DNA from: Anaerosacchariphilus hominis
GTDB lineage: Bacteria; Bacillota; Clostridia; Lachnospirales; Lachnospiraceae
Direction: 5' to 3'
Assembly (NCBI RefSeq): GCF_014290175.1
Contig: NZ_JACOOR010000002.1
Coordinates: 1-64,000, forward strand
DNA: 64,000 bases
Below the pieces are notes generated by a model, which worked only from the letters and a program-made list of their open reading frames with translations, was not told the origin of the DNA and did not search any database. Position numbers and translations under genes: made by a program. Of this stretch, positions 29,881 through 62,480 are shown piece after piece; position 1 is the stretch's first letter; every line of letters begins with the position of its first letter.

Positions 29881-29925
29881 ACTGATACATTCGGAACAAC
29901 AAAGCATAAAGTGAGGAGAGCACAG

Positions 29926-38900: not shown

Positions 38901-41900
38901 GAGAACCGGATTCATCGAAGCAAAAGAAGGAACATACTATTCCGGAAATGGATGGGAACTTTTAAGCGGCTGGCAGAATGTAAATAACCAGTGGTATTAC
39001 TTCGATTCAGAAACGAAGAAGAGCGTCGAGATACAGTATCATGGAAACTGGGCGGAAAAAGACGGCGAAAGATATTACTTTATCTATGGCTGGTATCTGG
39101 CTACCGGATTCCAGTACATCGACGACGCATGGTATTACTTCAATGGCAGCGGCGTACTGCAGACTGGAAGCTATGCAGTGGGCCAGACCATGTACCGAAG
39201 TGACGCGGACGGAAAACTTCTGACAGGAGTATATAAAGAGGCCGGAAAGGAGTATTACTATAACGGAGGACAAAGAATAACAGGCTGGCTGGTATTGGAC
39301 GGCAAAAAGTATTATTACAATGCAGATGGTGAAAAGCAGTTTGGAAAAGTACAGATTGGAAGCGTTTTCTATTATTTCGCACCGGAAACAGGAGAGCTGA
39401 AGACCGGACTGATTACAACAGAGGAAAACGGACAATCAGTAACTTATTATACAGGCTGGTACGAGTATCTCCAGAGCGGCTGGCACCGGATTGATAATCA
39501 GTGGTATTACTTTACATCGGATACAAAAGAAAGTGTAAAACTGGAAAAATCAGATGCTGAAGAGAACTGGATTACCATGGAAGGAAAAACCTATTACTTT
39601 ATCAACGGATGGACTTTGGCTGTCGGTTTCCAGTATATCGATGGAGCATATCATTATTTCGACGGTAATGGCGTAATGCAGAAAGGAACCTTCTGTGTAG
39701 GAAACAACTGGTATCAGACCGATGAGAAAGGAGCCGTGCTTCAGAATCAGTTTTACATAGACACAGCTACAGGGAACCGTTATTATTATGGAAGCGGACT
39801 GAATCGTGTGACAGGCTGGCAGTATCTGGACGGAAACTGGTACTATTTTGATGGAAATGGCATTCAGCAGACCGGAATCACAAAGATAAATGGAGAACTG
39901 TATTATCTTACAGAGGATGGAGTTTTGAAAACCGGACTGATTGAGTCTCAGGATGGAACCTATTACAGCGGCGGCGGTTGGACTCTGTTGAGCGGCTGGC
40001 AGAAGATTCAGGATCAGTGGTACTATTTTGACGCGGAAACAAAGAAGAATGAAGAACTGCAGCAGAACGGAAACTGGGTTACCAAAGCAGGTGAGAAGTA
40101 TTACTTTATCTATGGCTGGTATCTGGCTACCGGTTTTCAGTGGATTGATGGTAAGCTGTATTACTTTGACGGAACCGGAGCATTGCAGACCGGAAATTAT
40201 AAGGTCGGACAGATCTGGTATCGCAGCAATGAGGATGGTACTCTTTATACAGGAACTTATAAAGCAGAAGATGGCAGGGAGTACTACTACAATCAGGGAC
40301 AGCGGTATACAGGCTGGTTGAGCCTGGAGGGTAACAAGTATTTTTATAATGCAGCCGGAGTAAAACAGTATGGAAAGATCTGGAGCGGAGGCGTCTACTA
40401 TTATCTGAATGAAACAACAGGCGCGTTAGAGACCGGACTGATCATTGGAGTGAACGCAGAAGGAAAATCCGTAACCTATTATACGGGTGGCTATGAATAT
40501 CTGCAGAGCGGTTGGCACAGAATTCAGAATCAATGGAGATATTTCTCGGATGATTCTAAAGAGGAGCTTCCAGTAAAATCCCTGACCGCTGATGGAAACT
40601 GGGTGATGATGGAAGGAGATACCTATTATTTCGTCAATGACTGGACGCTGGCTACAGGCTGGCAGTACCTGAACAACAAATGGTATTATTTTGACGGAAA
40701 CGGAATCCTTCAGAAGGGCTGGTTTACGATCGGGGCAAGCTGTTATTATGCAGACCCGGAACAGGGTGGAGCATATACAGGGTTTAAGGAGTTCGGTGGA
40801 AAAAATTACTATTTTGACGGCTACGGGACCATGTATCGAGGCTGGCTTACCCTGAATTCCGGTTCTAAGACTGGTACGTTCTATTTTGACGAGAAAGGGG
40901 AACTCTGCACCGGCGTAACGCAGATAGGAGCTACCTACTATCTGTTCGATACCGAGGGAAAACTGGTAACGACGCAGACGGTCATTGGTGGAGTAACCTA
41001 TTATGCGACAGTATATGGAACACTTCGCAGCGGGCTGAACTGGGAGAACGGAGGATACTATTATTATCTGTCGGGACTCAGAAAGACAGGACTGCAGGAG
41101 ATAGGAGGAAACTATTATTACTTTGATGCCGCCACAGGATTGATGAAAACCGGCTGGGTTACCGTGGAGCAAGACGGAGAAAGTAGAACCTGGTGGTTTG
41201 CCGGAAATGGTGTCCGTGTAACGAGCTGGCAGTGGATTGATAATGAAATGTATTATTTCAATCAGAACGGAGTCCTTCAGAAAGGCTGGTTCAACGTGGG
41301 AGCAAGTCATTGCTATGCAGATCCGGCTACCGGCATTCTGGCGTATGGACTTCAGAAGATTGGAGAAGACACCTACTATTTCAACCGAAATGGTATAGCA
41401 TTGGAAGGCTTCGTATATGTAGATGGATGGCGATACTTTAAAAACTATAAGATGCAGACCGGAATCGTTCCGGTAGGAGAACTCTTTTATTTCTTTGATA
41501 AGAATGGAATCCGGCAGACCGGTCTGGTGACAGTGGAAGAAAACGGGCAGGAGGCCGAGTATTATCTGGACAGAAATGGAATCGTTCAGAGAGGCTGGTT
41601 CTACACAAACGGCGGCTGGAATTATTATTCCTGGGAAACAGGAAAGAAAACAGCGGCAGAAAAGATCCCAGCAAGCGAACTGAAGGAAGACCTGAGCTCT
41701 TACTGTCAGTGGTATCGGGTAACCGAGAACGGCAAGGAAAGCTGGTACTGTGTCTACGCAAACAGCTATGCGTTGACGGGTCTGGTAACCCTGGGAAATT
41801 ATCGTTACTACTTTGATAATCATGGAGCCCTTTACAAGGGCAGATTCGAGGTAGACGGAACCTCCTGGTACGCAGACGAGGCAACCGGTTCGATTCCGGT

Positions 41901-47967: not shown

Positions 47968-48020
47968 CGGTCTGCTTCATCTTAAATTTAATGTTCACGA
48001 AAAATAGAAAGGAACAGTTA

Positions 48021-49775
48021 ATGAACAAACAAAAATGCGATATTCTCCTCGCACTTAACAACTCCCCATTCATCAACCAGCGTCTCTTATCAGAAACATC
48101 CGGCTACTCCCTTGGCATCGTAAACCGTTGCCTGAAGGAGCTGCTGGAAAAAGGATATCTGAATGAGGAGATGCAGCCGACGGAACTGGCGAAAGAAGAA
48201 TTGGAAAAGAGCCGTCCGGAACGGGCAGTGATTCTGGCAGCAGGATACGGTATGCGGATGATTCCCATTAACACGGAGACGCCAAAAGGCCTTTTGCAGG
48301 TCAATGGGGAGACCCTGATAGAACGGGTGATCCGGCAGCTCCAGGAGGTTGGTGTTCGTGATATTACGGTGGTGACAGGTTTTATGAAGGAGGCCTATGA
48401 ATTTCTCATTGACCAGTATGAAATTCAGATGGTCATCAATATGGACTATGCCTCAAAAAACAACCTGCATTCCATGGCTCTGATAAAGGAAAAGCTGCGG
48501 AATGCTTATGTGGTTCCCTGCGATATCTGGTGTGAAGAGAATCCGTTTCATCGGAACGAACTGTATCCCTGGTATATGGTCTGTGATTTGGTGGATGATG
48601 AAAGTAATGTGCGGGTAAATCGGAAGCAGGAGCTGGTCAGAACGGAGTTGGGCGGCAATCGGATGGTGGGAATCGCCTATATCACCGGGGAGGCGGAACA
48701 GAAGCTGCAGGATAAACTGGGAAACATGGATGTATGCCCGGAATATCAGGAATGTTTCTGGGAGGAAGCGCTCTTTGATGATGACAGGATGTATGTGGCG
48801 GCGCGGATGGTTCCCTCGCAGAAGGTGTATGAGATTAATACCTATGAAGAACTGCGGGAACTGGACGCGTCCTCCAAGCAGCTGGATTCCAGAGTGCTGC
48901 GGCAGATTTCAGAGATCTTACAGGTCACGGATCAGAAGATTGAGAGTATTACAGTCCTGAAAAAAGGAATGACGAATCGGTCCTTTTTGTTTTCCTGTGA
49001 GGGGCAGCGCTACATCATGCGGATTCCGGGAGAAGGAACGGGAGAACTGATTAACCGGCAGCAGGAATATGCTGTTTATCAGGCCCTGGCTGACAGTCAT
49101 ATCAGCGATCAGGTTGTGTATATGAATCCGGAAAACGGGTATAAGATGACCCGGTATCTGGAACAGGTGCATAACTGTGATGCGAATGATCAGGAGGAAG
49201 TTCGGAAGTGTATGGTATTTCTGCGGAAATTCCATGAAAAGAAGTTACAGGTAGCTCATGCGTTTGATTTGTTTGAAAAGCTGGAATTTTACGAGGCATT
49301 GTGGAAAGGCGCGGATTCCTGTTTTCGGGACTATCGTGAGACAAAGCGAAAGGTCTATGAACTGAAAAAGTATATTGATGAGCAGCCGAAGGAATGGACG
49401 CTGACACATATAGACGCGGTTCCGGATAATTTTCTGATAGCAGATTCTGATGAGGCAGAGATACATCTGATCGACTGGGAGTATGCGGGAATGCAGGATC
49501 CCCATGTGGATATCGCCATGTTTGCCATCTACGCCATGTACGACAGAGCGCAGGTGGAAGCGCTGATAGACGCCTATTTTCCGGAGGGGTGTTCTGAGGC
49601 GGTACGTCGTAAGATTTATTGCTATATCGCAGTCTGCGGGCTGCTTTGGAGTAACTGGTGCGAGTATAAACGACAGCTGGGCGTGGAGTTCGGTGAGTAT
49701 TCCATCCGTCAGTATCGTTATGCCAAGGAGTATTATCGGATTTTTCAGGAGGAGCAGAATGGGATATCAGGTTGA
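48021..49775 (+). CDS. wHTH-LicC-LicA fusion: CTP:phosphocholine cytidylyltransferase plus choline kinase
   Basis: A 584-residue three-domain protein from ATG 48021 (after AAAGGA); the earlier ATG at 47991 has no site. Residues ~1-65 are a winged helix (LSETSGYSLGIVNRCLKELLEKGYL). Residues ~70-300 are a nucleotidyltransferase: AVILAAGYGMRM and ETPKGLLQVNGE are the LicC-type opening. Residues ~315-584 are an APH/choline-kinase domain: catalytic loop THIDAVPDNFL and LIDWEYAG. It would phosphorylate choline and activate it to CDP-choline. The N-terminal wHTH suggests self- or choline-dependent regulation. It overlaps the next gene by 17 nt. Confidence 0.88.
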   Translation: MNKQKCDILLALNNSPFINQRLLSETSGYSLGIVNRCLKELLEKGYLNEEMQPTELAKEELEKSRPERAVILAAGYGMRMIPINTETPKGLLQVNGETLIERVIRQLQEVGVRDITVVTGFMKEAYEFLIDQYEIQMVINMDYASKNNLHSMALIKEKLRNAYVVPCDIWCEENPFHRNELYPWYMVCDLVDDESNVRVNRKQELVRTELGGNRMVGIAYITGEAEQKLQDKLGNMDVCPEYQECFWEEALFDDDRMYVAARMVPSQKVYEINTYEELRELDASSKQLDSRVLRQISEILQVTDQKIESITVLKKGMTNRSFLFSCEGQRYIMRIPGEGTGELINRQQEYAVYQALADSHISDQVVYMNPENGYKMTRYLEQVHNCDANDQEEVRKCMVFLRKFHEKKLQVAHAFDLFEKLEFYEALWKGADSCFRDYRETKRKVYELKKYIDEQPKEWTLTHIDAVPDNFLIADSDEAEIHLIDWEYAGMQDPHVDIAMFAIYAMYDRAQVEALIDAYFPEGCSEAVRRKIYCYIAVCGLLWSNWCEYKRQLGVEFGEYSIRQYRYAKEYYRIFQEEQNGISG

Positions 49776-50634
49776 CAATGCGGTGATTATGGCGGCGGGA
49801 TTATCCAGCCGATTTGCCCCGCTTTCTTATGAGCGGCCGAAAGCCTTGATTACGGTAAAAGGAGAGGTGCTGATAGAGCGGCAGATCCGGCAGCTCCGGG
49901 AAGCCGGAATCAGAGAAATTATTCTGGTGGCAGGATATAAAAAAGAGCAGTTTTATTATCTGCGGGAAAAATATGGAGTGATCGTGATTGAGAATCCGGA
50001 ATATCTGACCCGGAATAATAACAGCAGCATCTATGCGGCAAGAAAGTATCTGAAAAACAGTTATATCTGTTCGGCGGATAATTATTTTGCGGAAAATCCC
50101 TTTGAAAAACAGGTGGAGGACAGCTATTATGCGGCGGTTTATGCCGAAGGAGCTACGGAAGAGTGGTGTATGACATCGGATAGGGAAGGATACATTACCG
50201 GGGTGCAGGTAGGCGGAAAAGACGCCTGGTATATGCTGGGCCATGTGTTCTGGTCTGAAAAATTCAGCCGCAGGTTTCTGGAGATTCTGGAGCGGGAATA
50301 TGACAGGGCGGAGACCCGGGATAAGCTGTGGGAAAGCATTTTCATCGAGCATTTGCGGGAGCTTCCTATGAAAATAAGAAAGTATCCAGAAAATGAGATT
50401 TATGAATTTGATTCTCTGGATGAATTAAGACAGTTTGATACATCCTATATTTCCGATACCCGCTCTGAGATTTTGAAAGAGATAGCAGGAAAGCTGTCCG
50501 GAACAGAAGCAGAGATACAGAATATTCGGGCATATAAAGCCGGAAACGCAGCGGCGGGATTTACCTTTGATTTTCGGGGAAAAAAGTATCGCTACAGTTA
50601 TGAGGATGAAGAACTGGGAGAGGAAAGAGCATGA
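49759..50634 (+). CDS. Second LicC-like nucleotidyltransferase
   Basis: A 291-residue protein from ATG 49759, behind AGGAGGAGCAGA, overlapping the fusion gene by 17 nt. It opens with the same nucleotidyltransferase signature (NAVIMAAGLSSRFAPLSYERPKAL) and continues as NTP-transferase fold (YICSADNYFAENPF, GHVFWSEKFSRRFLEILE). The last ~60 residues are an extra beta-rich extension. With a cytidylyltransferase already in the fusion, this copy may act on another acceptor or form a complex with it. It overlaps the BCCT gene by 4 nt. Confidence 0.85.
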   Translation: MGYQVDNAVIMAAGLSSRFAPLSYERPKALITVKGEVLIERQIRQLREAGIREIILVAGYKKEQFYYLREKYGVIVIENPEYLTRNNNSSIYAARKYLKNSYICSADNYFAENPFEKQVEDSYYAAVYAEGATEEWCMTSDREGYITGVQVGGKDAWYMLGHVFWSEKFSRRFLEILEREYDRAETRDKLWESIFIEHLRELPMKIRKYPENEIYEFDSLDELRQFDTSYISDTRSEILKEIAGKLSGTEAEIQNIRAYKAGNAAAGFTFDFRGKKYRYSYEDEELGEERA

Positions 50635-52136
50635 AAGAGAAAAAAATTGACTGGATGATCACATTAGTGCCATTGGTTTTAGTGGTAGGACTGAGCATTT
50701 TGTTTTTCCTGCTGCCGGAACAGTCGAATCAGGTATTGAGTCAGATTCGATTTTTCTTCGGAGATACCTTTGGCGTTTATTACCTGCTGATTGGTCTGGG
50801 AATTTTTCTGCTGTCCATATATATTGCGGCATCCAGATACGGAACGATTGTTTTGGGAGCGCCGGATGAGAAGCCGAAATATTCGTTTTTTGCCTGGGGA
50901 TCCATGATGTTTACCTGCGGTCTGGCAGCGGATATTCTTTTTTACAGCTTTTCGGAGTGGGTGCTTTATGCGGTGGATCCGCATATTGCGGAGCTGGGAA
51001 GCATGCAGGAATGGGCAGGGGTATTTCCGCTGTTTCACTGGAGCTTTATCCCCTGGGGCTTTTATCTGGTGCTGGCAGTGGCCTTTGGGTTTATGCTTCA
51101 TGTGAGAAAGCGGGAGCGCCAGAAATACTCGGAGGCATGTCGGCCGCTCCTTGGGAAATACACGGATGGCCTGGCGGGCAGAATCATTGATTTGCTGGCG
51201 GTCTTTGCGCTGCTGGCAGGAACAGCCACGACCTTCAGCGTAGCGACGCCGCTGATGGCAGGAATCGTCAGCGAACTCTTTCATGTGGAAATCAGCCGGA
51301 CGGTGATTACCATTATCATTTTGCTGATCACCTGTGTGATTTATACCTATTCATTGCTGCATGGGTTCAAGGGGATCAGTGTGCTGGCGAAAGCATGTAT
51401 TTATCTGTTCTTTGGTCTTCTGGCTTATGTGCTGCTTTTCGGAGGTGAAGGCAGATATATCATAGAGACCGGACTCACGTCACTGGGCAAAATGGTGGGA
51501 AATTTTCTGGAGCTTTCCACCTATACGGATCCCCTGCGGACTACGAATTTTCCGCAGAACTGGACCATATATTACTGGGCCTACTGGATGGTCTGGTGTG
51601 TGGCTGCTCCATTCTTTATCGGAAGCATCAGCCGGGGACGGACAGTACGGCAGACGATTCTGGGCGGTTATGTATTCGGCGTCGGTTCCACACTGACCAG
51701 CTTTATCGTTCTGGGCAATTATTCCATGGGCCTGCAGGTGACCAAGGCAGCTGATTTTATCGCGATTTACCAGGCGGACGGAGATTTGTATGGAATGATT
51801 ATCGCCATGATCAAGACGTTGCCCTGCACGCCGCTGGTGCTGTTAGTGCTTCTGGTGACCATGATAGCTTTCTATGCCACATCCTTTGATTCCATTGCGT
51901 TGACGGCGTCCTGTTACAGCTACCATCGGCTGGGAAAAGAGGAAAAGCCTCACCGGATGATTCAGCTCATGTGGTGTATTATGCTGATTGTGCTTCCGAT
52001 TGCGCTGGTATTTTCCGAAAGCTCCATGAGTAATCTGCAGTCGGTGAGCATCGTGGCGGCGTTTCCCATAGGGGCAGTGCTGGTGATGATAGCGGCCAGC
52101 TTTTTGAAGGATGCGAAGGCGTATCTAAATAAATAA
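50631..52136 (+). CDS. BCCT-family choline/betaine transporter
   Basis: A 501-residue integral membrane protein with about 12 hydrophobic helices, typical of betaine-choline-carnitine transporters. The signature aromatic region YYWAYWMVWCVAAPFFIGSISRGRTVR is intact, as is FAWGSMMFTCGLAADILFYSFSEW early on. In this context it imports choline for the adjacent kinase/cytidylyltransferase, the role LicB plays in other lic operons. It starts inside the last codon of the nucleotidyltransferase gene. Confidence 0.9.
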   Translation: MKEKKIDWMITLVPLVLVVGLSILFFLLPEQSNQVLSQIRFFFGDTFGVYYLLIGLGIFLLSIYIAASRYGTIVLGAPDEKPKYSFFAWGSMMFTCGLAADILFYSFSEWVLYAVDPHIAELGSMQEWAGVFPLFHWSFIPWGFYLVLAVAFGFMLHVRKRERQKYSEACRPLLGKYTDGLAGRIIDLLAVFALLAGTATTFSVATPLMAGIVSELFHVEISRTVITIIILLITCVIYTYSLLHGFKGISVLAKACIYLFFGLLAYVLLFGGEGRYIIETGLTSLGKMVGNFLELSTYTDPLRTTNFPQNWTIYYWAYWMVWCVAAPFFIGSISRGRTVRQTILGGYVFGVGSTLTSFIVLGNYSMGLQVTKAADFIAIYQADGDLYGMIIAMIKTLPCTPLVLLVLLVTMIAFYATSFDSIALTASCYSYHRLGKEEKPHRMIQLMWCIMLIVLPIALVFSESSMSNLQSVSIVAAFPIGAVLVMIAASFLKDAKAYLNK

Positions 52137-52735
52137 TGTAGGAAATCCTACAGAATACATTCGATTGGGCAGGGAAATGTCTTGACGAGGTGGTTCACAA
52201 AAAAGTGCTGATGAGCATGTAGTGTGCTTCTCAAAAGTTTCTACAAACCGCCAGCTGGAAAACGCATCAATCGCAGTATACTGATAAAAATGCAGGCTTT
52301 TGGCTTCGTTTACAAGGCATATAGTGGGAACAAATTTTACATCAACCTGAATTCGCTGACCGAGATAATTCATCTTCTCGTAAGACTTAGGAATATATTT
52401 AGGATTAGCAGGCTTTATGCCCTAAGCTTTTGTTTTCGAAGAAAACGATATAAGCCTGGAATCGAGTGTGTATAGCCGCACTGCATAAGCTTTACCCAGA
52501 AGATAACAAGCCCGGCATCGGGATTACGTCTACGCATATTTGAAATAAGTTTGATTTCTTCTGGAGTATGCTGATTAGGATGGTGATGGGGTCTGCGGGA
52601 ACGCTCTCGTAGGGACTCTATAGAACCATTATAGTAACGTTTCCACCGATAGACGTACTGACGATTTGTTTTGTGTTTGATGGTAGCCTTTGTGATACCG
52701 AATTTTTCAAGAAAAGAAATGCCAGTGAGGGAATT
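52130..52735 (-). pseudogene. IS481-family transposase relic
   Basis: Read on the minus strand, a broken transposase. The N-terminal HTH region (ISFLEKFGITKATIKHKTNR, then RYYNGSIESLRERSRRPHHHPNQHTPEEIKLI) and the linker GLVIFWVKLMQCGYTHSIPGLYR match the IS481 family; a frameshift or stop follows, then the integrase core resumes at MNYLGQRIQVDVKFVP and YQYTAIDAFSSWRFVETFEKHTTCSSALF and ends prematurely. The catalytic C-terminal part is missing and no terminal inverted repeats were identified, so it is inactive. Confidence 0.85.
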
Positions 52736-52773
52736 GAAGATTGCTGTTTTTACCAGAAAGTGGTAAAATAAAT

Positions 52774-52803
52774 TTGAATTAGTTAAAAATGTGCTTTGAT
52801 AAT
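52774..52803 (+). promoter_or_regulatory. Candidate promoter of the SIR2-type gene
   Basis: TTGAAT (52774-52779), an 18-nt spacer and GATAAT (52798-52803), about 130 nt before the SIR2 gene. It would drive the defence-like genes downstream of the IS relic. Confidence 0.4.
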
Positions 52804-52936
52804 TTACCCAGTAAGACAGAGATTGTTTTATTGGGCTTTATTGTTATTGGGGGATAACAAAGAACACGACTTATTACAGAAAATAGTAATTGAGAAACGT
52901 ATAAAACTAAGAAAATAAAAAGGGAGTGAAATAGTA

Positions 52937-55501
52937 ATGTGTGACGCTATTTTGAAATTAAAGTTGTCTTTAGAGGAAAAAACACCAGCGCTGCTATTAG
53001 GAGCCGGATTTTCGTATGGAGCAAAAAACGAAAGAGGTGAATTACTGCCAATGGGGAGAGAACTGACTGAAAAATTATATAAATATATGTTTATAATGAA
53101 TCCTCCCGAAGAGGATATTTTAGAAGAGGACAAGGAGGGGGCAGAACGGTATAAAGAAAATGGAGATTTAAAAGGATTATGTGGTCTGTTGCGTGATGAA
53201 GGAAGGGTTGATGAGCGTAATAAGTATTTAACATCTATTTTTAGTGGTGCAACTATTGATAAAAAAAGTAAAATTTACAATATTAAAAATTATAAATGGG
53301 ATAAAATATTTACTTTGAATATTGATTGCCTTCTAGAAAATATATTTGAGCAGGAAGCGGTTTCATATAGGGTGTGGAATCGGGATAATGATGATAGAAG
53401 GAATACGTATTCGGATACAGTGATAATTAAATTACACGGTTGTGTAAATAATGCTAAGGCAGGTTATATTTTTGATGATCAAGAATATATTAATTTTTTA
53501 AATGATGATGATTGCTTTGCCAGAGATTTTGGCGATGCGTACTCAAAAGGAGATATGATATTTATTGGAACGGAGTTTCAAGAAGATGATTTGAAAACTA
53601 TTATTACTAAATATGGTTCTAAAGGGTATGATACAAGTGCAAATAATTACTTCTTTGTTTGTCCTCAAATAAATAGTGTACGTTTAAATAGACAAATTAG
53701 AAATACTACAAATTTTTATTGGATTCCGTGGACGGCTGAAAAATTTTTTGATTTTCTTTATGATAACGTGAGCGTGAAAAAGGATATCAAAAAGATTTTA
53801 TTAGAGAAAGGTATGCGTTCATTAGACGATATATATAAAGAAAAGGGAAAAGGGTATGAAAGTAAACTATATATGGGATATGAATCACAATATGCAGATT
53901 TTTTCGATGAGTGGGATATTATTCATCCTGGAGTAGTACGATTTGAAGAAAAGATTATAAATAGTAAGAAAAATTTATTTGCAGTAATATATGGAAAAAG
54001 CTATGTGGGAAAAAGCTGTATTGCAAAAAGAGTTTTAATTGATTTAAGAAAACAAGGCTTTTTGGCTTTTGAATTTAATATGAGATCTTCGGAATATATA
54101 CATCTTTTTAGAGAATATATTGCACAATTGCCGGAAAATACGAAGATCGCAGTTTTATTTGATGAAGCAACATTTTATTTCAACTTACTATATACAAACC
54201 TTATTGATAAATGCCCGAGTAATATAAAGCAGCTCATAGTTATAACATCAGATAATAGTAGTAATTACTTTGCTAAGCGAGATATTTTGGAAAGTAAACA
54301 TTGTGTAGAAACATTTAAAACAGATGAGCATATCTCGTGTTTTTTTGCTGAAGAAATATATATTAAATTAAAAGATAAACATTGGCTAAATAAACCAGGG
54401 ATACTTGGAAGCAAAAAAAGTGAAATAAAAAATTATGCGATTCAGGTAAATGATATTATAGAATTTTTGTATAATATTTCTCATGGACATGGATTTGAAG
54501 CACATTATGAAGATATGTTCACATTATTGACACACGATGTTAATTATAAATATTTACAAGCATTGGCAGTTCTAGAGGTATTAGGCTTAGGAAGTATAAC
54601 GACTAGAATTTTACCTAGTTTAATTAAAAGTGAATGTAATAATTTTAATTTTGCAGAATTTAAGAAGAAATTCGATGAAATATTATTAGTTTCAGATCAT
54701 AGAGTGAAAATTAGATGTTTGCGATTAATACAAAAAGCAATTTTTACAGATATGAATAAAGAAAATATAATTAATATTCTTGAGGAAATTGTACGCCAAA
54801 CATATGGTCAATTTAATGAAGGAGATATTAACGAGTGGAGCGAGATTTTTCAAAAAGCATTGACGGTAAAGAAAATTTTAAAAGAAAAATTACTTACATT
54901 AGAGGATATAAGAGAATTACTAAATAATGTAGAAAAATATGGAGAAAACTATAGCTTTTATTGGATTCAAAGAGGAATTGCGGCACAAAAAGCCAATGAG
55001 TTTGATTTGGCAGATCATTATTTTAGAGAGGGAATTCGGATTAGACCTGTATCTTATCAAGCGCGTCATGCATTAGCAAAAAATTTGATGGAACGAGCTG
55101 TAGAACAGGTGAATAATATGAATTTGTCATATGCAGCATATTATATGGATGAAGGTATTAGAGAAATGAAAAGTATCATAGATGATAGTGCATTTAGTAG
55201 AGGCTACAAGTACTCTTTACATGCACTTATAGATATGAGCATAAAATATTTTAATGCGTGTCAAAAAATTATGGAATTTGAGCATATGAAATATATCCAA
55301 AGTAAAATATTACATATGTCTACAAAGGAATTGGATACCTGTATTCTTGCAGAAATCCAGAGGTATATTGATTATTGTATTTATAATGGATGTAGTAAAA
55401 TTTGTGAACCTATTATACTTAAACATTATGAAAAAATTCCTTTAATAAAAGAAATTACAGAGCAAGATTACTTGATAGAAAATTTAGATTGGGAATCTTA
55501 A
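52937..55501 (+). CDS. SIR2 domain / P-loop NTPase / helical repeat protein, putative defence gene
   Basis: An 854-residue cytosolic protein. An N-terminal SIR2-like fold (about 1-275) has GAGFS (22-26), FTLNID with Asn128 and Asp130, and KLHG with His167, the usual NAD-handling residues. Then a P-loop NTPase region: Walker A GKSYVGKS (353-360) and Walker B-like VLFDE (Asp409). The C-terminus (~620-854) is alpha-helical, TPR-like (FYWIQRGIAAQKANEFDLADHYFREGI). SIR2-STAND proteins of this shape are anti-phage NADases in Avs-type systems: the repeats sense, the NTPase oligomerises and SIR2 depletes NAD. That is inference here. Strongly AT-rich, unlike the core genes, and flanked by an IS relic. 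Confidence 0.8.
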   Translation: MCDAILKLKLSLEEKTPALLLGAGFSYGAKNERGELLPMGRELTEKLYKYMFIMNPPEEDILEEDKEGAERYKENGDLKGLCGLLRDEGRVDERNKYLTSIFSGATIDKKSKIYNIKNYKWDKIFTLNIDCLLENIFEQEAVSYRVWNRDNDDRRNTYSDTVIIKLHGCVNNAKAGYIFDDQEYINFLNDDDCFARDFGDAYSKGDMIFIGTEFQEDDLKTIITKYGSKGYDTSANNYFFVCPQINSVRLNRQIRNTTNFYWIPWTAEKFFDFLYDNVSVKKDIKKILLEKGMRSLDDIYKEKGKGYESKLYMGYESQYADFFDEWDIIHPGVVRFEEKIINSKKNLFAVIYGKSYVGKSCIAKRVLIDLRKQGFLAFEFNMRSSEYIHLFREYIAQLPENTKIAVLFDEATFYFNLLYTNLIDKCPSNIKQLIVITSDNSSNYFAKRDILESKHCVETFKTDEHISCFFAEEIYIKLKDKHWLNKPGILGSKKSEIKNYAIQVNDIIEFLYNISHGHGFEAHYEDMFTLLTHDVNYKYLQALAVLEVLGLGSITTRILPSLIKSECNNFNFAEFKKKFDEILLVSDHRVKIRCLRLIQKAIFTDMNKENIINILEEIVRQTYGQFNEGDINEWSEIFQKALTVKKILKEKLLTLEDIRELLNNVEKYGENYSFYWIQRGIAAQKANEFDLADHYFREGIRIRPVSYQARHALAKNLMERAVEQVNNMNLSYAAYYMDEGIREMKSIIDDSAFSRGYKYSLHALIDMSIKYFNACQKIMEFEHMKYIQSKILHMSTKELDTCILAEIQRYIDYCIYNGCSKICEPIILKHYEKIPLIKEITEQDYLIENLDWES

Positions 55502-55697
55502 TAGGAAAAAGATGATATGACAGTATGATATGGAAAATAAAGTTAGTCAGTGAAGTAAATTGAAAAGTAAATGTGATCTTTGTGAAATTGATAATTAATA
55601 GAGCAAGAGAGGGTATATATTTTAAGATTATTAAACGAAATTGGTAATCGCTTATAAAATTATATTTTATAAAGTATTAAAATGAGGAGGTGATGTG

Positions 55698-58600
55698 ATG
55701 ATAGTGGAGTTGTTAAGTGCCATATTAGAAAGCTTTATATATGACATCACCAGTTCTGGAATAAAGAATTGGATAGATAAACGGCGCTTGAATGAGTTAC
55801 TTAAAGGTATTAGAGAAGATATCCGTAATTTTTGTGGAAAAAATGAATGCAGTTATCTCGACTCGAGTGCCTTCGAATATTTTATTAGAAATACAGAATT
55901 TTTACAAAGAGTGATTGAGAGGGCGGTGACAACTAAACTTGAAAAGACAGAAAAAGAGTTCCTTAGGGATGAGATTAAAAAGGCTAGAGAAATTGCTGTA
56001 GCGGAAAATATTTTATTTACAAATAATGAAGAACGTATAGTACGTGATCTGTATCATATTACGACGGAAAAAGTAGAGAATTATTATCGAAATAAACTTT
56101 CTGCGGGACAGCGTCACGCAGTGGCAGTATACTTGGCTAATCTTACGGAATTAAGGGAGTCAATGGAGGAGTTTAGGGATAAGAGTTTGGCAAATGATAA
56201 GGAAATCCTTAAAGCGATTAAAGAAAAAGGAAAGATTAGTGATACTAAAGCAGCAAAGATAGCATATTTGCTATCAGAGGAATTAGTTGAAGGCCGTTTC
56301 CTGGAATACAATAGTCTTGCAAAAGCAATTGAGGATAAATCTGATGATTTGGCAGTCTTTTACGAGTGCTTGTTGCATATATTCTGTTCAGAAAAATGCA
56401 CAGATGCGGTGCGAAAAATAGGGGGTATTTCCAATGCAGATATTAGAGATATCGCTGTTAGAACGGCACTTCCTATACTTGTTTATAGAAAAGAACAGTT
56501 AGATTGTTTGTATGAGTTTTCATCTGCAAGTTCACTGAAAGGTATTATCTATGGTTTGGTAAATGATGATTATACAGATATTTTTTTGGAGAAGATTACG
56601 TTTGAAGAAGGGGTTGAGATTCATAACCTTACTTTCAATAAAAAATTACTTTATGAAGAGGAACAGCTTGTAAAGCAGATTGCTATTATATCTTTATATA
56701 AGAGACAGATCAGAACCGTGCATCTGGCCATGGAAGAACTGGAAAATGGAAATCAAACATGGTTAACGGAGCTCTTAATAGCGGATAAGAGAGTGGATAG
56801 TCTTATCGGTGGAGATGTTATTGATGGAAAATATGCGGGACTAAATGAGCTGGTGGAGTATATACAGCAATATCAAAACATTTATGATGGCTTGTGTAAA
56901 GAACTTCGAACGGTTTACTATTCTGTTTTGGTAAAAGCTTATTTATTCATAAATAAGGTAGATAAAGCAGAGCAATCGATCCCGATTGAATTAGCAAAGG
57001 AGCGTCCTCTTTCAGATTATATGTATGAAATAAAGATTGAAAAAAATGAAGTAGAATTAGCGGAAGTATATTCATATTCTGTACAAAATGAAACTTTTTG
57101 GTTACTTAATAACTATTTTTCGTTACGTAGAAATGAACGGGAGTTGATAGAATTTTGTAGAAAACATGAAGATATTTTTGAAAAAGATTGGCCGTTATTC
57201 TTTATGTATCAGGGCGCATTACAAGCGCTGGGATTTCAGAACGAGCGGGAAAAACAATTGAGAAAACATTCTGATAAATTAAATCAGACATACGAGTATT
57301 GGAATGAATTACTGAATATAGATACTTCAAAAAAAACTCGGGAGGAGTTTGTTGAGGCATGTCAAAAAGGAAAAATGACAAGCTTATTTTATAATTCTGA
57401 GTATTTAATAATTGAGCGTCTTTTAAATTATCAAGAATATGCACTTGCAGAATTATATATAGCAAAGCATGAAAGAATTGGTGGAACGAATTATCAGATC
57501 AAAAAATATAAAGCTATCATTCAGCAAAGTAAAGAAAATGAGATTGAGGCATTGAAGTGGTATAGGGCTTCGTTCGATGAGAACCAAGAAGATGCATTTG
57601 TTATAGATTCTTTAATTACTTTGTTACTGTGTAATAGACGAAATGTGAGTAAGAATATAGTAGATGCGGCATTGAAAGCGGATACATCAAGGCTTCATAT
57701 GTTGGTGGCAGCCTGCTATTTGAAGGATGGGAATATATCTAAAGCAAAGTGTGAAAACATAAGAGCTATATTGATGGAAAAAGAAGGGGATGTTTCTGTT
57801 TATTGTCAATATATTTCCATTTCAACAAGTGCTCATAATAACGAAACAGTAACTTTAGCTGGAGTGGATGCTGATACAGCAGTGTATTGTAAAAAAGTTG
57901 ATGGTGGGCATCGGTGGCTATGTATATATAAAGATAGTATTTTACCAAGTTCTCCATATGTGTGGAATAATGATTATCATGTACATATTGACGATGCTGC
58001 TAGGTTAGGGTATCTGAGAAAACACAGAGGTAGTCAAATTATAATTGAAAATGAGCTATACGAAATTGTGGAAATAATGACATTAGATTGTTATCTGTTT
58101 AGAACATGTATGGCCAAGATGATACAAAATGGTGTTGCAAAGGAGATATCAATACCATTGAAGGACGGAGAGATGGATATTTCTACCCTTACAGAAATGC
58201 TTGGTCAAAAAACACCGAATGAAAGAAATGCGTATGATTGGCTTGAACAATATAATAACCTTCAATATGTTCCGCTTCCGTTGTATGCATATAAACAATT
58301 TACCCGGTTATCATATTTTCAGTTTGTAGATATGATTCTTGATTCCCCAAATTATTTTGTGCGGGAGAAGATTAGTACATTCAGGCAAACAAAAAAAGGC
58401 GTTGTTTCATTTGCTGCTCTAGTTACTTTGTATAAGATCGGGTTTCCGGCAGAAAGTATTCGTGAAGCAGGTGGAGTTATTATGGAGTCGACATTAGTTC
58501 AAGCCATTTCTGATTCTGCGGAAATTATCAAAGAATATGATAGAGAAACTGTTGCTTCTTTAGGAATGATAGATGGAAATCTTTTTTTGAATCAAGTGGA

Positions 58601-59279
58601 TGATACTGGAAAAGAGTATTGGTTAAAAGAAGCGGGAAGCTTTAAAAAATATTGTGAGGCAATACCTGTTATTACAAATGATAGTGATCTATTAGAGGAA
58701 ATTTTTGGCGGACATGATATTAAAGACGTATTCGGGATATGTGATTATGATGCAATATCTTTCGTACATCATAATGAAGGATATTCTCTTATAGCGGTTG
58801 AAGCGATATTAAATTCTTTATCAATGGATGAAGAGCTTAAGTTAAATGTTATTACCATTCCAGACTGGCTGGTTATTCAAGAAATAAGTGGTGAAAGGTT
58901 ACTTGGGTATACAAAAAGTCTATTAGATAAGGGATGTTTAATATCTGTTACTAAGAATGTGATTGATTATTTGTCTTTAGAAATCTCGAAAGCTGATGAA
59001 GGGACTAAGAAAAAATTATATTTATTATGGGATAGATTGTTATCGGATGTTGAAAAATATCCAGAGAAGCAAAGGATAGTGTTTATACAGGCAATATCTG
59101 AGATTATAGTTTCTTATAAGGATGAGATAAAAAGTGTCGATGTGGGAATTCTTCGGATATTAATGAATAACATACTTTTGCTTCGAAAACAGAAAATAGA
59201 GATGATTTTTGACGGGGAACAATTGTCATTTGCGCTTGTAAATGCAGAATCAGAAGAACAAATTCTAGAAATAAAGTAG
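55698..59279 (+). CDS. Large helical-repeat protein with GreAB-C-like and PIN-like C-terminal regions
   Basis: About 1,193 residues from ATG 55698, 7 nt after GAGGAGG (GTG 55695 is too close). Residues 1-~720 are helical, with TPR-like pairs (YQEYALAELYIAKHERIGG, EIEALKWYRASFDENQEDAF). Residues ~728-795 resemble the GreA/GreB C-terminal fold (ARLGYLRKHRGSQIII and ENELYEIVEI). The last ~330 residues look like a PIN-type nuclease (acidic stretches such as ITNDSDLLEEIF and CDYDAIS), though I could not confirm all metal ligands. This order matches the TPR-GreAB-C-PIN conflict systems described from comparative genomics (recalled, not checked). It lies 196 nt after the SIR2 gene. Confidence 0.68.
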   Translation: MIVELLSAILESFIYDITSSGIKNWIDKRRLNELLKGIREDIRNFCGKNECSYLDSSAFEYFIRNTEFLQRVIERAVTTKLEKTEKEFLRDEIKKAREIAVAENILFTNNEERIVRDLYHITTEKVENYYRNKLSAGQRHAVAVYLANLTELRESMEEFRDKSLANDKEILKAIKEKGKISDTKAAKIAYLLSEELVEGRFLEYNSLAKAIEDKSDDLAVFYECLLHIFCSEKCTDAVRKIGGISNADIRDIAVRTALPILVYRKEQLDCLYEFSSASSLKGIIYGLVNDDYTDIFLEKITFEEGVEIHNLTFNKKLLYEEEQLVKQIAIISLYKRQIRTVHLAMEELENGNQTWLTELLIADKRVDSLIGGDVIDGKYAGLNELVEYIQQYQNIYDGLCKELRTVYYSVLVKAYLFINKVDKAEQSIPIELAKERPLSDYMYEIKIEKNEVELAEVYSYSVQNETFWLLNNYFSLRRNERELIEFCRKHEDIFEKDWPLFFMYQGALQALGFQNEREKQLRKHSDKLNQTYEYWNELLNIDTSKKTREEFVEACQKGKMTSLFYNSEYLIIERLLNYQEYALAELYIAKHERIGGTNYQIKKYKAIIQQSKENEIEALKWYRASFDENQEDAFVIDSLITLLLCNRRNVSKNIVDAALKADTSRLHMLVAACYLKDGNISKAKCENIRAILMEKEGDVSVYCQYISISTSAHNNETVTLAGVDADTAVYCKKVDGGHRWLCIYKDSILPSSPYVWNNDYHVHIDDAARLGYLRKHRGSQIIIENELYEIVEIMTLDCYLFRTCMAKMIQNGVAKEISIPLKDGEMDISTLTEMLGQKTPNERNAYDWLEQYNNLQYVPLPLYAYKQFTRLSYFQFVDMILDSPNYFVREKISTFRQTKKGVVSFAALVTLYKIGFPAESIREAGGVIMESTLVQAISDSAEIIKEYDRETVASLGMIDGNLFLNQVDDTGKEYWLKEAGSFKKYCEAIPVITNDSDLLEEIFGGHDIKDVFGICDYDAISFVHHNEGYSLIAVEAILNSLSMDEELKLNVITIPDWLVIQEISGERLLGYTKSLLDKGCLISVTKNVIDYLSLEISKADEGTKKKLYLLWDRLLSDVEKYPEKQRIVFIQAISEIIVSYKDEIKSVDVGILRILMNNILLLRKQKIEMIFDGEQLSFALVNAESEEQILEIK

Positions 59280-59402
59280 AAATAATATGGGGAAATGGCT
59301 GTAAATTAGATTCAATGTCATGGGGCAAAGAATTGAATGCAGGCACTTTCTTAATCTGTCAGGTTATAATATTGGCCAAGCAAAAGAAAAGAGGCGTTAA
59401 TA

Positions 59403-60350
59403 TTGAAAAATACTATTAAAGTAGATACATCGTCTGCTACAATAGAAAAGTCAATGACTAAAATGCTAGAGGCATCTAAGAGGTTATCTAACTCGTTAGC
59501 AGTAACTGTAAATGAAATAATGAAAAGTAATGCAAAATATTCGCAGGATAGGATGTTTGAATTAACAGAAGTAATGCGAAAAACAATGAATTCATATGTG
59601 AAAATAAATACAGCCTATTTAACTAATAGTATGTTTTCTGATTTGATAAAAAATACTATGGAATCACTAGTGGAGTCATTTAAAGAATATGAGAAAATTG
59701 ATATTTCAAAATCAGCCAGAGCAATGGCGGAATCAATGAACAAAATTTCAAAAAATATTGCAACAGAGCAATTGAGACAGCTACAACAAATAGATTTTTC
59801 GACTGTGTTTGCGAATATAATATCTGAATCAACATCTTTTTTGGAAATTATTGGAGCGGCATATGATGTGGTTCGAGGTGAGGATGAAGAGAAAATTGGA
59901 AAAAGTGATTTATTTACAGAAGAAGAGATGCGAGAGGCGTTATCTGAACAGGTAACTAACCCGAAAGGGTTTCAAACAAGAGTTTCCGAATGGTCAGAAA
60001 AGAAAAAAGTGCAATTTTTTATTGCTTGGCAATTGATATGTTTTATATATGCAAATTTTTTACAACCATATTTCACAGAAAAAATAGGTATGCCAGTAAC
60101 TACATATGTTGTTAGTAATGTAAAAGAACTTCCGGAAAAGGGAGCAAGGATAGTTGGACAAATTCAAGAAAATATTGAAGCAATAATTGTCGAAAATACA
60201 AATTATTATTATAAAATTACTTTTACAGATGAGAACGGCGAGACGAAAGAAGGATATGTGGCGAAGCGGAATTTAAAGATTGTTGAATATAAAAAGGAAG
60301 AGAACGTCAATGAAAAATCAGCGCCAGATAATGATACGGAGACGAAATAA
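59403..60350 (+). CDS. Membrane-anchored coiled-coil protein with SH3-like tail
   Basis: A 315-residue protein from TTG 59403, with AAAGAGG about 10 nt upstream. Residues 1-~150 are helical and rich in Ser, Met and Asn (KSMTKMLEASKRLSNSLAV, MAESMNKISKNIATEQLRQ). One hydrophobic helix lies at ~205-226 (VQFFIAWQLICFIYANFLQ). After it a bacterial SH3-like beta-domain begins ~240 (EKGARIVGQIQENIEAIIV, TKEGYVAKRNLKIV). It looks like an envelope-associated sensor or effector of the preceding defence-like genes. Low GC. It may also be a phage-derived protein. Confidence 0.6.
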   Translation: MKNTIKVDTSSATIEKSMTKMLEASKRLSNSLAVTVNEIMKSNAKYSQDRMFELTEVMRKTMNSYVKINTAYLTNSMFSDLIKNTMESLVESFKEYEKIDISKSARAMAESMNKISKNIATEQLRQLQQIDFSTVFANIISESTSFLEIIGAAYDVVRGEDEEKIGKSDLFTEEEMREALSEQVTNPKGFQTRVSEWSEKKKVQFFIAWQLICFIYANFLQPYFTEKIGMPVTTYVVSNVKELPEKGARIVGQIQENIEAIIVENTNYYYKITFTDENGETKEGYVAKRNLKIVEYKKEENVNEKSAPDNDTETK

Positions 60351-60535
60351 TTTTATACAATTAATATTTTAGATAATTTTTTATATAAAATAAGGTCAAA
60401 TAAAATAAATTTTGAACTTGTAAGGATTCTTTACATGTTCAGCATATAGTAGTCGAAGAAATAAGGAAGAATGCGAATAGAGATGAATGAAATGGAATGA
60501 ATTTACAACGAATAATGTAAGAGATTTACAGTATC

Positions 60536-60564
60536 TTTACACTCTATTTCATAAGTGTTATAAT
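60536..60564 (+). promoter_or_regulatory. Strong extended -10 promoter of the glycan cluster
   Basis: TTTACA (60536-60541), 17 nt, TATAAT (60559-60564) with TG at -15/-14 (TGTTATAAT). A second TTTACA lies about 12 nt before it. It begins transcription 35-45 nt before the dehydratase gene. Confidence 0.8.
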
Positions 60565-60605
60565 AAAATTGTATGTGTAATTCTATAACCTGTGAGGATG
60601 AAACC

Positions 60606-62480
60606 ATGAGTTTGGAGAGATTTATTGAAAAAAATGCACCAAAGAATCGCATTGCGCTACTGGTGGTGCTTGATATACTAATTATTACAATTTCAGGCTT
60701 TTTAGCATTATATGTCCGTTTTGATTTTAGTTTCAGTAAAATGGATATGACGTATGTAGATTATGAACTATATTATCTGCCGACAAATCTGATCTTAACG
60801 TTATTGATTTTTGTGGCGTTTAAGTTGTATCGTAGTGTTTGGAGGTTTGCAAGTACTACAGAGCTTTTGAATGTCATTGGAGCTTGTTCGGGTAGTATTC
60901 TGGTGCAGATAATTTTGATGGCGATTCTGGGAATGCGGATGCCGGTCAGCTATTATATGATGAAATATGTGCTTCTGATCGCAGGGATTGGATGTTTACG
61001 ATTCACATATCGAATTCTACGCATGTTCCAGGAAAGGCGGCTGGGATTACAGAGAGACAAGCGGAAGAATACTATGGTAGTCGGTGGTGGAGAAGCGGGC
61101 GCTATGATTATCAAGGAGTTTCAGAATAGCCGCTATCTGGATCAGAAAGTCTGCTGTGTGGTGGACGATAATACGTCAAAGGTAGGCAAATATATCCGTG
61201 GTGTGAAGATCATGGGAACAAGAGAGGATATTCCCTATCTGGCCCATGAGTTGGATATTGATGAAATCATAGTAGCACTTCCTTCGGTATCCCAAAAGGA
61301 AGTGAGTGCAATTCTGCAGATCTGCCAGAAGACAGATTGTCAGTTACGCGTCCTGCCGGGCTTGTATCAGATGATCAATGGGGAAGTCAGCGTTTCACGG
61401 CTGCGTAAAGTAGAAATTGAGGATTTGTTGGGACGTGAACCTATCAAGTTACAGGTAGAATCCGTCATGGGATATGTTCAGGGTAAGGTGGTACTGGTTA
61501 CAGGCGGAGGTGGTTCTATTGGAAGTGAGCTTTGCCGTCAGATAGCTGCACATGATCCGAAGCAGTTGATTATCGTAGATATCTATGAAAATAACGCTTA
61601 TGACATCCAGCAGGAATTGAAGCGAAAGTATCCGAACCTGGATTTGGTAGTACTGATTGCTTCTGTACGGAACACCCATCGTATTAATACGATATTTGAA
61701 ACCTATCGTCCGGAAATCGTGTACCATGCGGCCGCGCATAAGCATGTACCCCTCATGGAGGACAGCCCCAATGAGGCTATCAAGAATAATGTATTTGGAA
61801 CTTACAAGACAGCTCAGGCAGCGGACAAGTATGGTGTAAAGCGTTTCGTGCTGATTTCCACAGATAAGGCAGTAAATCCCACCAATGTCATGGGTGCGTC
61901 CAAGCGTATGTGTGAGATGGTAATTCAGATGATGAACAGCCGCTCTAAGACAGACTTTGTGGCGGTTCGCTTCGGAAATGTACTGGGCAGTAATGGAAGT
62001 GTCATTCCTCTGTTCAAGAAACAGATTGAACAGGGGGGGCCTGTCACTGTAACGCATCCGGATATTATTCGTTATTTTATGACCATACCGGAAGCGGTTT
62101 CTCTGGTGCTTCAGGCAGGAGCTCTGGCAAAAGGCGGAGAAATCTTTGTGTTGGATATGGGGGAGCCTGTAAAGATTCTGGATCTGGCAGTGAACTTGAT
62201 TAAGCTGTCCGGGTACAAGCCTTATGATGAGATTCCTATCGAATTTACTGGACTGCGTCCGGGTGAGAAACTTTATGAAGAACTTTTGATGAGTGAAGAA
62301 GGACTGCAGGAGACGGAGAATAAGCTGATTCATATCGGAAAACCCATTGACTTTGATGAAGAGTGGTTTCGAAAGAAATTAGACGAGATATATGAGCTGG
62401 CTAATGAAGATTATATAGATATTCGGGATAAAATACAGGAAATTGTACCGACTTATGTAAGAAAAAAACAGAACAAATAG
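60606..62480 (+). CDS. CapD/PglF-type nucleoside-diphosphate-sugar dehydratase (membrane-anchored)
   Basis: About 624 residues from ATG 60606 (MSLERFIEKNAPKNRI). Four N-terminal TM helices are followed by a CoA-binding-like Rossmann domain (~130-260, TMVVGGGEAGAMIIKEF) and the NAD(P)-dependent epimerase/dehydratase domain with VLVTGGGGSIGSELCRQI (~295) and the catalytic STDKAVNPTNVMGASKR segment (~415). In homologues this makes 4-keto-6-deoxy sugars from UDP-GlcNAc. AAACC/GAGG-like site upstream is weak. The start is in the promoter-proximal stretch; a longer frame begins at 60573. Followed by the aminotransferase gene 12 nt later. Confidence 0.92.
   Translation: MSLERFIEKNAPKNRIALLVVLDILIITISGFLALYVRFDFSFSKMDMTYVDYELYYLPTNLILTLLIFVAFKLYRSVWRFASTTELLNVIGACSGSILVQIILMAILGMRMPVSYYMMKYVLLIAGIGCLRFTYRILRMFQERRLGLQRDKRKNTMVVGGGEAGAMIIKEFQNSRYLDQKVCCVVDDNTSKVGKYIRGVKIMGTREDIPYLAHELDIDEIIVALPSVSQKEVSAILQICQKTDCQLRVLPGLYQMINGEVSVSRLRKVEIEDLLGREPIKLQVESVMGYVQGKVVLVTGGGGSIGSELCRQIAAHDPKQLIIVDIYENNAYDIQQELKRKYPNLDLVVLIASVRNTHRINTIFETYRPEIVYHAAAHKHVPLMEDSPNEAIKNNVFGTYKTAQAADKYGVKRFVLISTDKAVNPTNVMGASKRMCEMVIQMMNSRSKTDFVAVRFGNVLGSNGSVIPLFKKQIEQGGPVTVTHPDIIRYFMTIPEAVSLVLQAGALAKGGEIFVLDMGEPVKILDLAVNLIKLSGYKPYDEIPIEFTGLRPGEKLYEELLMSEEGLQETENKLIHIGKPIDFDEEWFRKKLDEIYELANEDYIDIRDKIQEIVPTYVRKKQNK

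What the first reader, a model, noticed from the sequence alone, without database searches (positions are those of the whole stretch)
52937..60350. Putative defence island: SIR2-NTPase, TPR-GreAB-C-PIN-like and a membrane SH3-like protein
Three consecutive AT-rich genes sit between an IS relic and the glycan cluster. The first has SIR2 residues (GAGFS, Asn128, Asp130, His167) plus a P-loop (GKSYVGKS) and helical repeats, as in Avs-type NADases. The second joins long helical repeats to GreAB-C-like and PIN-like regions. The third has a coiled coil, one TM helix and an SH3-like tail. Whether they act as one system is unknown; this trio has no counterpart that I recognise.
Basis: partly seen in the sequence, partly recalled or inferred. 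Interest (0 to 1): 0.75.

Follow-up and report, generated by a model that had tools for sequence, protein, structure and literature searches.

The report
Two solo anti-phage genes, not trio
Next to a sugar-coat gene cluster this bacterium carries two separate predicted anti-virus genes of already described kinds, one that probably destroys the cell's NAD and one that probably attacks transcription, plus a third, possibly membrane-bound protein of unknown role; we found no good sign that the three form one new system.

Summary
The three AT-rich genes are real (31.7% G+C against 47.6% for the window). They are best read as a row of independent cargo genes.

Gene 1 (854 aa) is a SIR2-STAND-TPR protein. 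Its predicted model matches solved EfAvs5 (9jap) and AVAST5 filaments first. NADase residues and Walker A are invariant in 43 of 43 aligned sequences. PADLOC's Avs5 model does not detect it, so I call it Avs5-like, a divergent clade.

Gene 2 (1193 aa) is a distant relative of the published TPR-GreA/B-C-PIN conflict proteins (PMC8195603). A relative passes Pfam PF20698's cut-off; the window protein does not. Some relatives sit beside BREX or type I restriction genes.

Gene 3 (315 aa) has a helical N-terminus, a possible TM helix and a bacterial-SH3-like tail; its role is unknown.

In 15 related loci none holds two of the three families. One shared contig length (8,191) weakly hints at a gene 2-gene 3 pairing in close strains. 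Interest is modest: new members of known kinds.

The parts
52937..55501 (+). Gene 1: 854-aa Avs5-like SIR2-STAND-TPR protein, predicted NADase
   Evidence: SIR2_2 6.9e-14; model, pLDDT 86.9; top PDB match 9jap EfAvs5, E 6.5e-23; profile-profile 99.6%
52937..53770 (+). Gene 1 SIR2 effector domain, residues about 1-278; N128, D130, H167 invariant in 43 of 43
53933..54376 (+). Gene 1 P-loop NTPase core, residues about 333-480; Walker A 353-360 (53993-54016)
   Evidence: strand-helix order; G353, G358, K359 in 43 of 43; nSTAND3 14.3 bits and ATPase_2 19 bits, both below cut-off
54386..55471 (+). Gene 1 C-terminal helical/TPR region, residues about 484-845; candidate sensor
   Evidence: TPR_8 675-704 and TPR_2 674-704, below cut-off; helices; W676 in 43 of 43, Q678 in 42 of 43
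55698..59279 (+). Gene 2: 1193-aa TPR-GreAB-C-PIN-like protein (ORF can also start at GTG 55695)
   Evidence: relative L004 passes PF20698; model, pLDDT 85.2
55698..56180 (+). Gene 2 N-terminal helical domain, residues 1-161; no named family; position of the variable effector in the published system
   Evidence: helices 2-161; no Pfam hit there at E <= 1
56196..57830 (+). Gene 2 helical/TPR-like superhelix, residues 167-711
57876..58127 (+). Gene 2 candidate GreA/B-C-like beta domain, residues 727-810
   Evidence: strands 727-795, helix 796-810; assigned by position relative to the published architecture, not by a direct match
58389..58871 (+). Gene 2 PIN-like domain, residues about 898-1058; D1016, D1018, E1035 invariant in 31 of 31
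   Evidence: (PF20698 matches residues 903-1030 of relative L004, 30.1 bits, cut-off 27.8)
59403..60350 (+). Gene 3: 315-aa protein of unknown role, possibly membrane-bound (TTG start)
   Evidence: (179 proteins at E <= 0.001)
60009..60065 (+). Gene 3 possible TM helix, residues 203-221
   Evidence: hydropathy mean 1.39
60117..60278 (+). Gene 3 bacterial-SH3-like domain, residues 239-292
   Evidence: SH3_3 E 9.5e-5, below cut-off; 2kt8, E 6.4e-4

Best explanation
The stretch is a small accumulation of independently acquired, solo-acting anti-phage type genes between a phosphocholine-type locus and a surface-glycan cluster. It is not one three-gene system.

Gene 1 most likely works like Avs5. 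Its C-terminal repeats recognise a phage protein; the STAND NTPase then drives assembly, probably a filament as solved for Avs5; the SIR2 domains hydrolyse NAD+ and the infected cell stops supporting the phage.

Gene 2 most likely works as proposed for TPR-GreA/B-C-PIN proteins: the Gre-like domain docks at the RNA polymerase secondary channel, the PIN domain cuts the transcript, and the N-terminal domain is a second effector.

Gene 3 is a separate, possibly membrane-anchored protein with a bacterial-SH3-like tail and a helical N-terminus; my guess is that the tail binds cell wall, but its function is open.

Shown here: domain content, conserved active-site residues, model similarity of gene 1 to Avs5, solo context of relatives in the loci read. 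Inferred: NAD hydrolysis, phage sensing, filament formation, RNA polymerase docking, RNA cleavage, topology and role of gene 3.
For: Gene 1: SIR2_2 6.9e-14. N128, D130, H167, G353, G358, K359 and W676 in 43 of 43 aligned sequences. Model pLDDT 86.9; top PDB matches are EfAvs5 9jap (6.5e-23) and AVAST5 filament 9nc9 (4.1e-18); hhalign against five Avs5-like proteins 99.6%, E 1.1e-23, 655 columns. Walker A 353-360, TPR 675-704, W676 and Q678 fall at nearly the positions printed for PaAvs5-1: 357-364, 672-705, Trp675, Gln677 (PMC12931631, passages).

Gene 2: relative L004 (23% identity over an alignment of 1194 positions) has PF20698 at 30.1 bits against a cut-off of 27.8. D1016, D1018, E1035 in 31 of 31 rows. 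[quoted passage not shown]

Neighbours: BREX PglX, PglZ and BrxL beside gene 2's relative in L002, hsdM and hsdR in L057, all above their models' cut-offs; hsdR and a SNF2-type helicase in L003, both below cut-off; ORFs read by eye as conjugation and ParA genes in L059 and as relaxase, IS and integrase genes in L056. Gene 1's relatives: end of a viral contigs record with phage-like genes (L034), about 2 kb from an integrase read by eye (L060).

No two families in any of 15 loci.
Against: PADLOC's Avs5 model does not hit gene 1 at E <= 1. It hits 2 of 43 aligned sequences at E <= 0.01, and in the one I looked at (P0111) only the SIR2 part. My gene 1 profile did not find the full-length Avs5 of L064 at E <= 1e-3. 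With only two Avs5-like proteins hhalign aligned the SIR2 domain alone. Foldseek TM-scores to 9jap are low (0.34/0.35, rmsd 26.9), so the domain packing differs; SAMD9 superposes somewhat better (TM 0.44), and single-domain SIR2 proteins give the best Z. I checked PaAvs5's Tyr661 only at residue 661 here, which is mostly Leu.

Gene 2: neither PF20698 nor a Gre domain is found in the window protein at E <= 1. The aspartate expected at the end of the first PIN strand (recalled) is replaced by S/T followed by F/T/Y in 31 of 31 rows, so nuclease activity is uncertain. The fold searches were filled by helical-repeat chains and did not test the Gre and PIN parts. PADLOC has no hit for gene 2 or for relatives L004 and L059.

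Not every gene 2 relative has defence neighbours: those of L004, L005 and L058 showed none that I recognised with certainty.

System question: no terminator-like site lies in either gap between the genes, so co-transcription is possible; the shared contig length 8,191 could mean that genes 2 and 3 travel together in close strains.
Confidence: 0.78

Rival explanations
1. The three genes form one operon-encoded defence system: a membrane-anchored sensor or scaffold (gene 3), a transcription-targeting arm (gene 2) and an NADase arm (gene 1).
For: Same strand and similar low G+C; gaps of 196 and 123 bases without a terminator-like site; the 8,191-base contig length shared by P0121 (gene 2, 98%) and P0162 (gene 3, 87%).
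Against: 0 of 15 related loci hold two of the three families. Gene 2 relatives sit beside unrelated genes. P0121 ends at residue 851, which makes the contig coincidence ambiguous: a gene 2 cut off by the contig end would leave no room for gene 3 downstream.
Confidence: 0.1
2. Genes 2 and 3 are a recent two-gene unit (gene 3 an accessory), with gene 1 unrelated.
For: 123-base gap; contig-length coincidence. In L063 a gene 3 relative lies just downstream of a RES-domain gene (PF08808, 2.1e-7, above cut-off), and in L061 just downstream of an ORF that looks HEPN-like by eye: gene 3 may follow different effector genes.
Against: No gene 3 relative near any of nine gene 2 relatives. In L062 the upstream ORF is a small helix-turn-helix protein by eye. 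The HEPN-like ORF matched no Pfam, PADLOC or NCBIfam family. Only three distant gene 3 contexts could be read.
Confidence: 0.2
3. Gene 1 is a SIR2-NTPase of another kind (DSR2-like or a bacterial SAMD9-like protein) rather than Avs5-like.
For: DSR2 and SAMD9 chains also match the model; PADLOC's best hits are ThsA SIR2 domains; Avs5 HMM silent on the window protein.
Against: By Foldseek E-value the best chains of EfAvs5 (6.5e-23) and AVAST5 (4.1e-18) stand ahead of the best SAMD9 (5.0e-15) and DSR2 (5.1e-9) chains. Length and motif positions fit Avs5; the DSR2 chains listed with an NTPase-length match are 919 to 1002 residues long.
Confidence: 0.15

Closest known systems
Avs5 (AVAST type 5, SIR2-STAND)
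   Same: SIR2 effector, P-loop with Walker A near residue 357, C-terminal TPR with invariant W and nearly invariant Q at nearly the same positions, top solved-structure match
   Different: Not detected by the PADLOC Avs5 model; 18% identity to the Avs5-like proteins of L064 and L050 in the alignment; canonical HG motif where PaAvs5-1 has NG; different packing in the model (TM 0.34)
TPR-GreA/B-C-PIN conflict system (Pfam PF20698; PMC8195603)
   Same: Order N-terminal domain, helical repeats, beta domain, PIN-like domain; solo gene in changing contexts
   Different: Window protein below Pfam detection; N-terminal domain is none that Pfam names; expected first PIN aspartate missing
DSR2 / ThsA (other SIR2 defence NADases)
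   Same: SIR2 domain similarity in sequence (ThsA) and fold
   Different: ThsA has a SLOG-type sensing domain instead of an NTPase (recalled); DSR2 is longer and ranks below Avs5
SAMD9 (human)
   Different: 12% identity; eukaryotic restriction factor with further domains (recalled)
Bacterial SH3 (SH3_3) proteins
   Same: C-terminal domain of gene 3
   Different: Helical N-terminus and linker matched no named family above cut-off

Membership tests
Avs5 | N-terminal SIR2 (PF13289) domain with catalytic Asn, Asp and His/Asn | tested here: met
   52.6 bits, cut-off 24.5; N128, D130, H167 in 43 of 43
Avs5 | Central STAND NTPase (nSTAND3, PF20720) with Walker A | tested here: inconclusive
   Walker A invariant and strand/helix order fits; PF20720 14.3 bits, below 27.2, in the window protein; 13 of 43 aligned sequences at E <= 0.01
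Avs5 | C-terminal repeat sensor domain with conserved Trp and Gln | tested here: met
   Helical region, TPR matches below cut-off, W676 43 of 43 and Q678 42 of 43; the conserved Tyr661 of PaAvs5 was not matched at residue 661
Avs5 | Detected by the PADLOC Avs5 profile | tested here: inconclusive
   No hit for the window protein at E <= 1; 2 of 43 aligned sequences at E <= 0.01. Not a biological defining feature: the three tested Avs5 homologs share only 18-21% identity
Avs5 | Whole-length structural similarity to solved Avs5 | tested here: met
Avs5 | Phage-triggered NAD+ hydrolysis and protection | not testable with these tools
   Needs an assay
TPR-GreA/B-C-PIN system | C-terminal PIN domain of family PF20698 | tested here: inconclusive
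   No hit in the window protein at E <= 1, in L002 at E <= 1 or in L057 at E <= 0.1; above cut-off in relative L004 (30.1 vs 27.8); below cut-off in L059, L058 and L005. Homology window-L004 E 9.6e-67 over an alignment of 1194 positions
TPR-GreA/B-C-PIN system | TPR repeats | tested here: inconclusive
TPR-GreA/B-C-PIN system | GreA/B-C domain between repeats and PIN | tested here: inconclusive
   Beta domain at the right place; no Pfam Gre hit; not searched alone
TPR-GreA/B-C-PIN system | Mostly standalone gene without conserved neighbours | tested here: met
   Nine loci, no gene 1 or gene 3 family; differing neighbours
   0 of 15 loci hold two of the families; flanks of L001, L005, L011, L034, L057, L059 and L061 are about 3 kb or less on at least one side

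The most novel reading that the evidence does not exclude
Gene 3 belongs to a family of membrane-anchored SH3 accessory proteins that attach to different intracellular effectors (a TPR-GreAB-C-PIN protein here, a RES-domain protein in L063, a HEPN-like protein in L061) and place or control them at the membrane. The window would then hold a membrane-tethered, transcription-targeting defence unit beside an Avs5-like NADase.
Probability: 0.1. Interest if true: 0.6.

Novelty: new member of a known kind. Interest (0 to 1): 0.33.

Why it matters
It extends two kinds of anti-phage protein into a low-G+C branch (named relatives are mostly Lachnospiraceae): an Avs5-like SIR2-STAND family whose window member PADLOC's Avs5 model misses, and a branch of TPR-GreA/B-C-PIN proteins whose window member Pfam misses. 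Defence surveys that rely on these models would undercount both. The TPR-GreA/B-C-PIN mechanism is a prediction in the paper I read (PMC8195603, section 7); this branch, a solo gene with a conserved acidic triad but without the first PIN aspartate, is a usable test case. The finding does not reveal a new type of system.

Tried and rejected
One system: rejected on context, with the limits told above. In one search I gave 16 loci; the 16th, L064, is the Avs5 comparison locus and matched none of the three families at E <= 1e-3. In one search (55 loci, many with only about 1.5 kb of flank) no locus held two families either.

Plasmid and phage carriage: gene 1 had no tblastn match at E <= 1e-5 in plasmids or phages, gene 2 none in plasmids (relatives L059 and L004 none either), gene 3 none in phages. 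Gene 2 in phages and gene 3 in plasmids were not searched. Gene 2 and gene 3 had no confirmed relative in viral contigs; gene 1 had 7 loci there, the best 33% identical over residues 17-833.

Element ends: repeats in 51900-61200 gave no long near-identical flanking pair among those listed; no boundary could be set.

Promoter scan: 39 sites against 45.8 expected, so uninformative; terminators 4 against 2.4.

Genome tallies: gene 2 in 5 of 397 genomes of the family of G001, G001 itself among them. Gene 1 in 22 of 397, of which two hits cover most of the model. Gene 3 in 8 of 397, of which three extend beyond the SH3 tail or a helical piece; a second draw of 299 gave only genomes already seen, 5 of 299. 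Genus draws for gene 3: 1 of 2, 1 of 1, 1 of 6, each being the starting genome; 0 of 5 in the genomes of L001-L005. One genome (G390) has both a gene 2 relative and a partial SIR2 hit, on different contigs.

Avs5 profile in genomes: 7 of 200 and 4 of 291; 0 of 14 controls both times, so the search had no positive control.

First hhalign with only two Avs5-like proteins matched the SIR2 domain only; adding three more gave the whole-length match. L064 was scored by PADLOC hmmscan and L050 by the genome search with the Avs5 model; L065, L066 and L067 were chosen by similarity to these and not scored.

Gene 3 profile against the PDB: its top hit is a designed coiled-coil protein (8qae, E 3.7e-4), a composition-type match that I set aside.

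Literature: six paper searches were answered and one was rejected for wording. I claim no absence from print. PMC12931631: passages only. PMC8195603: passages and section 7 in full. PMC7159879: passages only, not useful for Gre/PIN.

Dropped rows: A1 used 26 of 38 hits, A2 42 of the 120 listed, A3 36 of the 120 listed, A4 25 of 38 plus five loci, each plus the window protein.


Full report
The observation. Three + strand genes of low G+C lie at 52937-55501, 55698-59279 (the ORF also has a GTG at 55695) and 59403-60350. Upstream are a choline kinase/nucleotidyltransferase, a second nucleotidyltransferase and a BCCT transporter, which read as a phosphocholine locus. Downstream are genes that by eye are a sugar epimerase and an aminotransferase. 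The transposase relic is plausible by eye but unsupported by Pfam.

Gene 2. The window protein has no Pfam match above cut-off. Five distant relatives at 21-32% identity align over most of their length. One of them, L004, passes the cut-off of PF20698, 'PIN domain associated with the TPR-GreAB-C-PIN system' (30.1 vs 27.8 bits); L059, L058 and L005 match below cut-off, and L057 does not match, nor does the closer L002. The model (pLDDT 85.2, pTM 0.71) shows a helical N-terminus (1-161), a long helical superhelix (167-711), a beta domain (727-795) and an alpha/beta C-terminal part (about 898-1058). In 31 aligned sequences 14 columns are invariant, eight of them from residue 889 on, among them D1016, D1018 and E1035. 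The aspartate that I recall at the end of the first PIN strand is absent in 31 of 31 rows, so nuclease activity is an inference. PMC8195603 section 7 (read whole) describes this system: variable N-terminal effector, constant TPR, GreA/B-C and PIN region, mostly standalone genes. It proposes docking at the RNA polymerase secondary channel and cleavage of the transcript by the PIN domain.

Gene 3. The C-terminus resembles bacterial SH3 (SH3_3 E 9.5e-5 below cut-off; 2kt8 E 6.4e-4). The best hydrophobic stretch is 203-221 with a mean of 1.39, a possible TM helix. The C-terminal third is the most conserved part of the family. In L063 a relative follows a RES-domain gene; in L061 it follows an ORF that looks HEPN-like by eye, although no Pfam, PADLOC or NCBIfam family matched that ORF; in L062 it follows a small ORF that looks like a helix-turn-helix protein by eye.

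Are they one system? I searched 15 loci (9 with gene 2 relatives, 3 with gene 1, 3 with gene 3) with the three proteins and the three profiles: none holds two of the families. Seven of the 15 (L001, L005, L011, L034, L057, L059, L061) have a flank of about 3 kb or less on at least one side. Gene 2's relatives sit behind brxL of a BREX operon (L002), before type I hsdM/hsdR genes (L057), near hsdR-like and SNF2-like genes below cut-off (L003), or among ORFs that by eye are conjugation, relaxase, IS or integrase genes (L056, L059); for L004, L005 and L058 I recognised no sure defence neighbour. Gene 1's relatives lie at the end of a viral contigs record (L034) and near an integrase by eye (L060); L011 is a 3,959-base contig. 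The single hint of linkage is that the longest contig of P0121 (gene 2, 98%) and of P0162 (gene 3, 87%) both measure 8,191 bases. Since P0121 ends at residue 851, this is ambiguous, and a chance match among 38 x 120 length pairs is not excluded (I did not calculate it).

Verdict. These are two predicted solo anti-phage proteins of described kinds plus one unassigned protein.

Noticed in passing
47991-52136: Choline kinase fused to a nucleotidyltransferase, a second nucleotidyltransferase and a BCCT transporter in a row: reads as a phosphocholine-decoration (lic-like, recalled) locus next to the glycan cluster.
   Followed up: partly
29767-44109: One open frame of 4781 aa, perhaps a giant surface protein; not analysed.
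   Followed up: no
L061:15449-18842: Gene 3 relative beside a HEPN-like ORF, a short uvrB-like fragment and what looks like a GNAT toxin with its antitoxin, all by eye.
   Followed up: partly
L034:6761-10490: viral contigs record ending in a 312-aa membrane-type ORF (by eye) followed by a 33% relative of gene 1; the ORF has no Pfam, PADLOC or NCBIfam match.
   Followed up: partly
L002:1669-13582: BREX-1 pglX, pglZ and brxL with a TPR-GreAB-C-PIN-like gene directly behind brxL.
   Followed up: yes
L060:8086-10638 and L064:9068-11443: Two different SIR2-STAND proteins in genomes drawn from the family of G001; L064 is a full-length PADLOC Avs5 match (5.4e-57), its neighbours not identified.
   Followed up: partly
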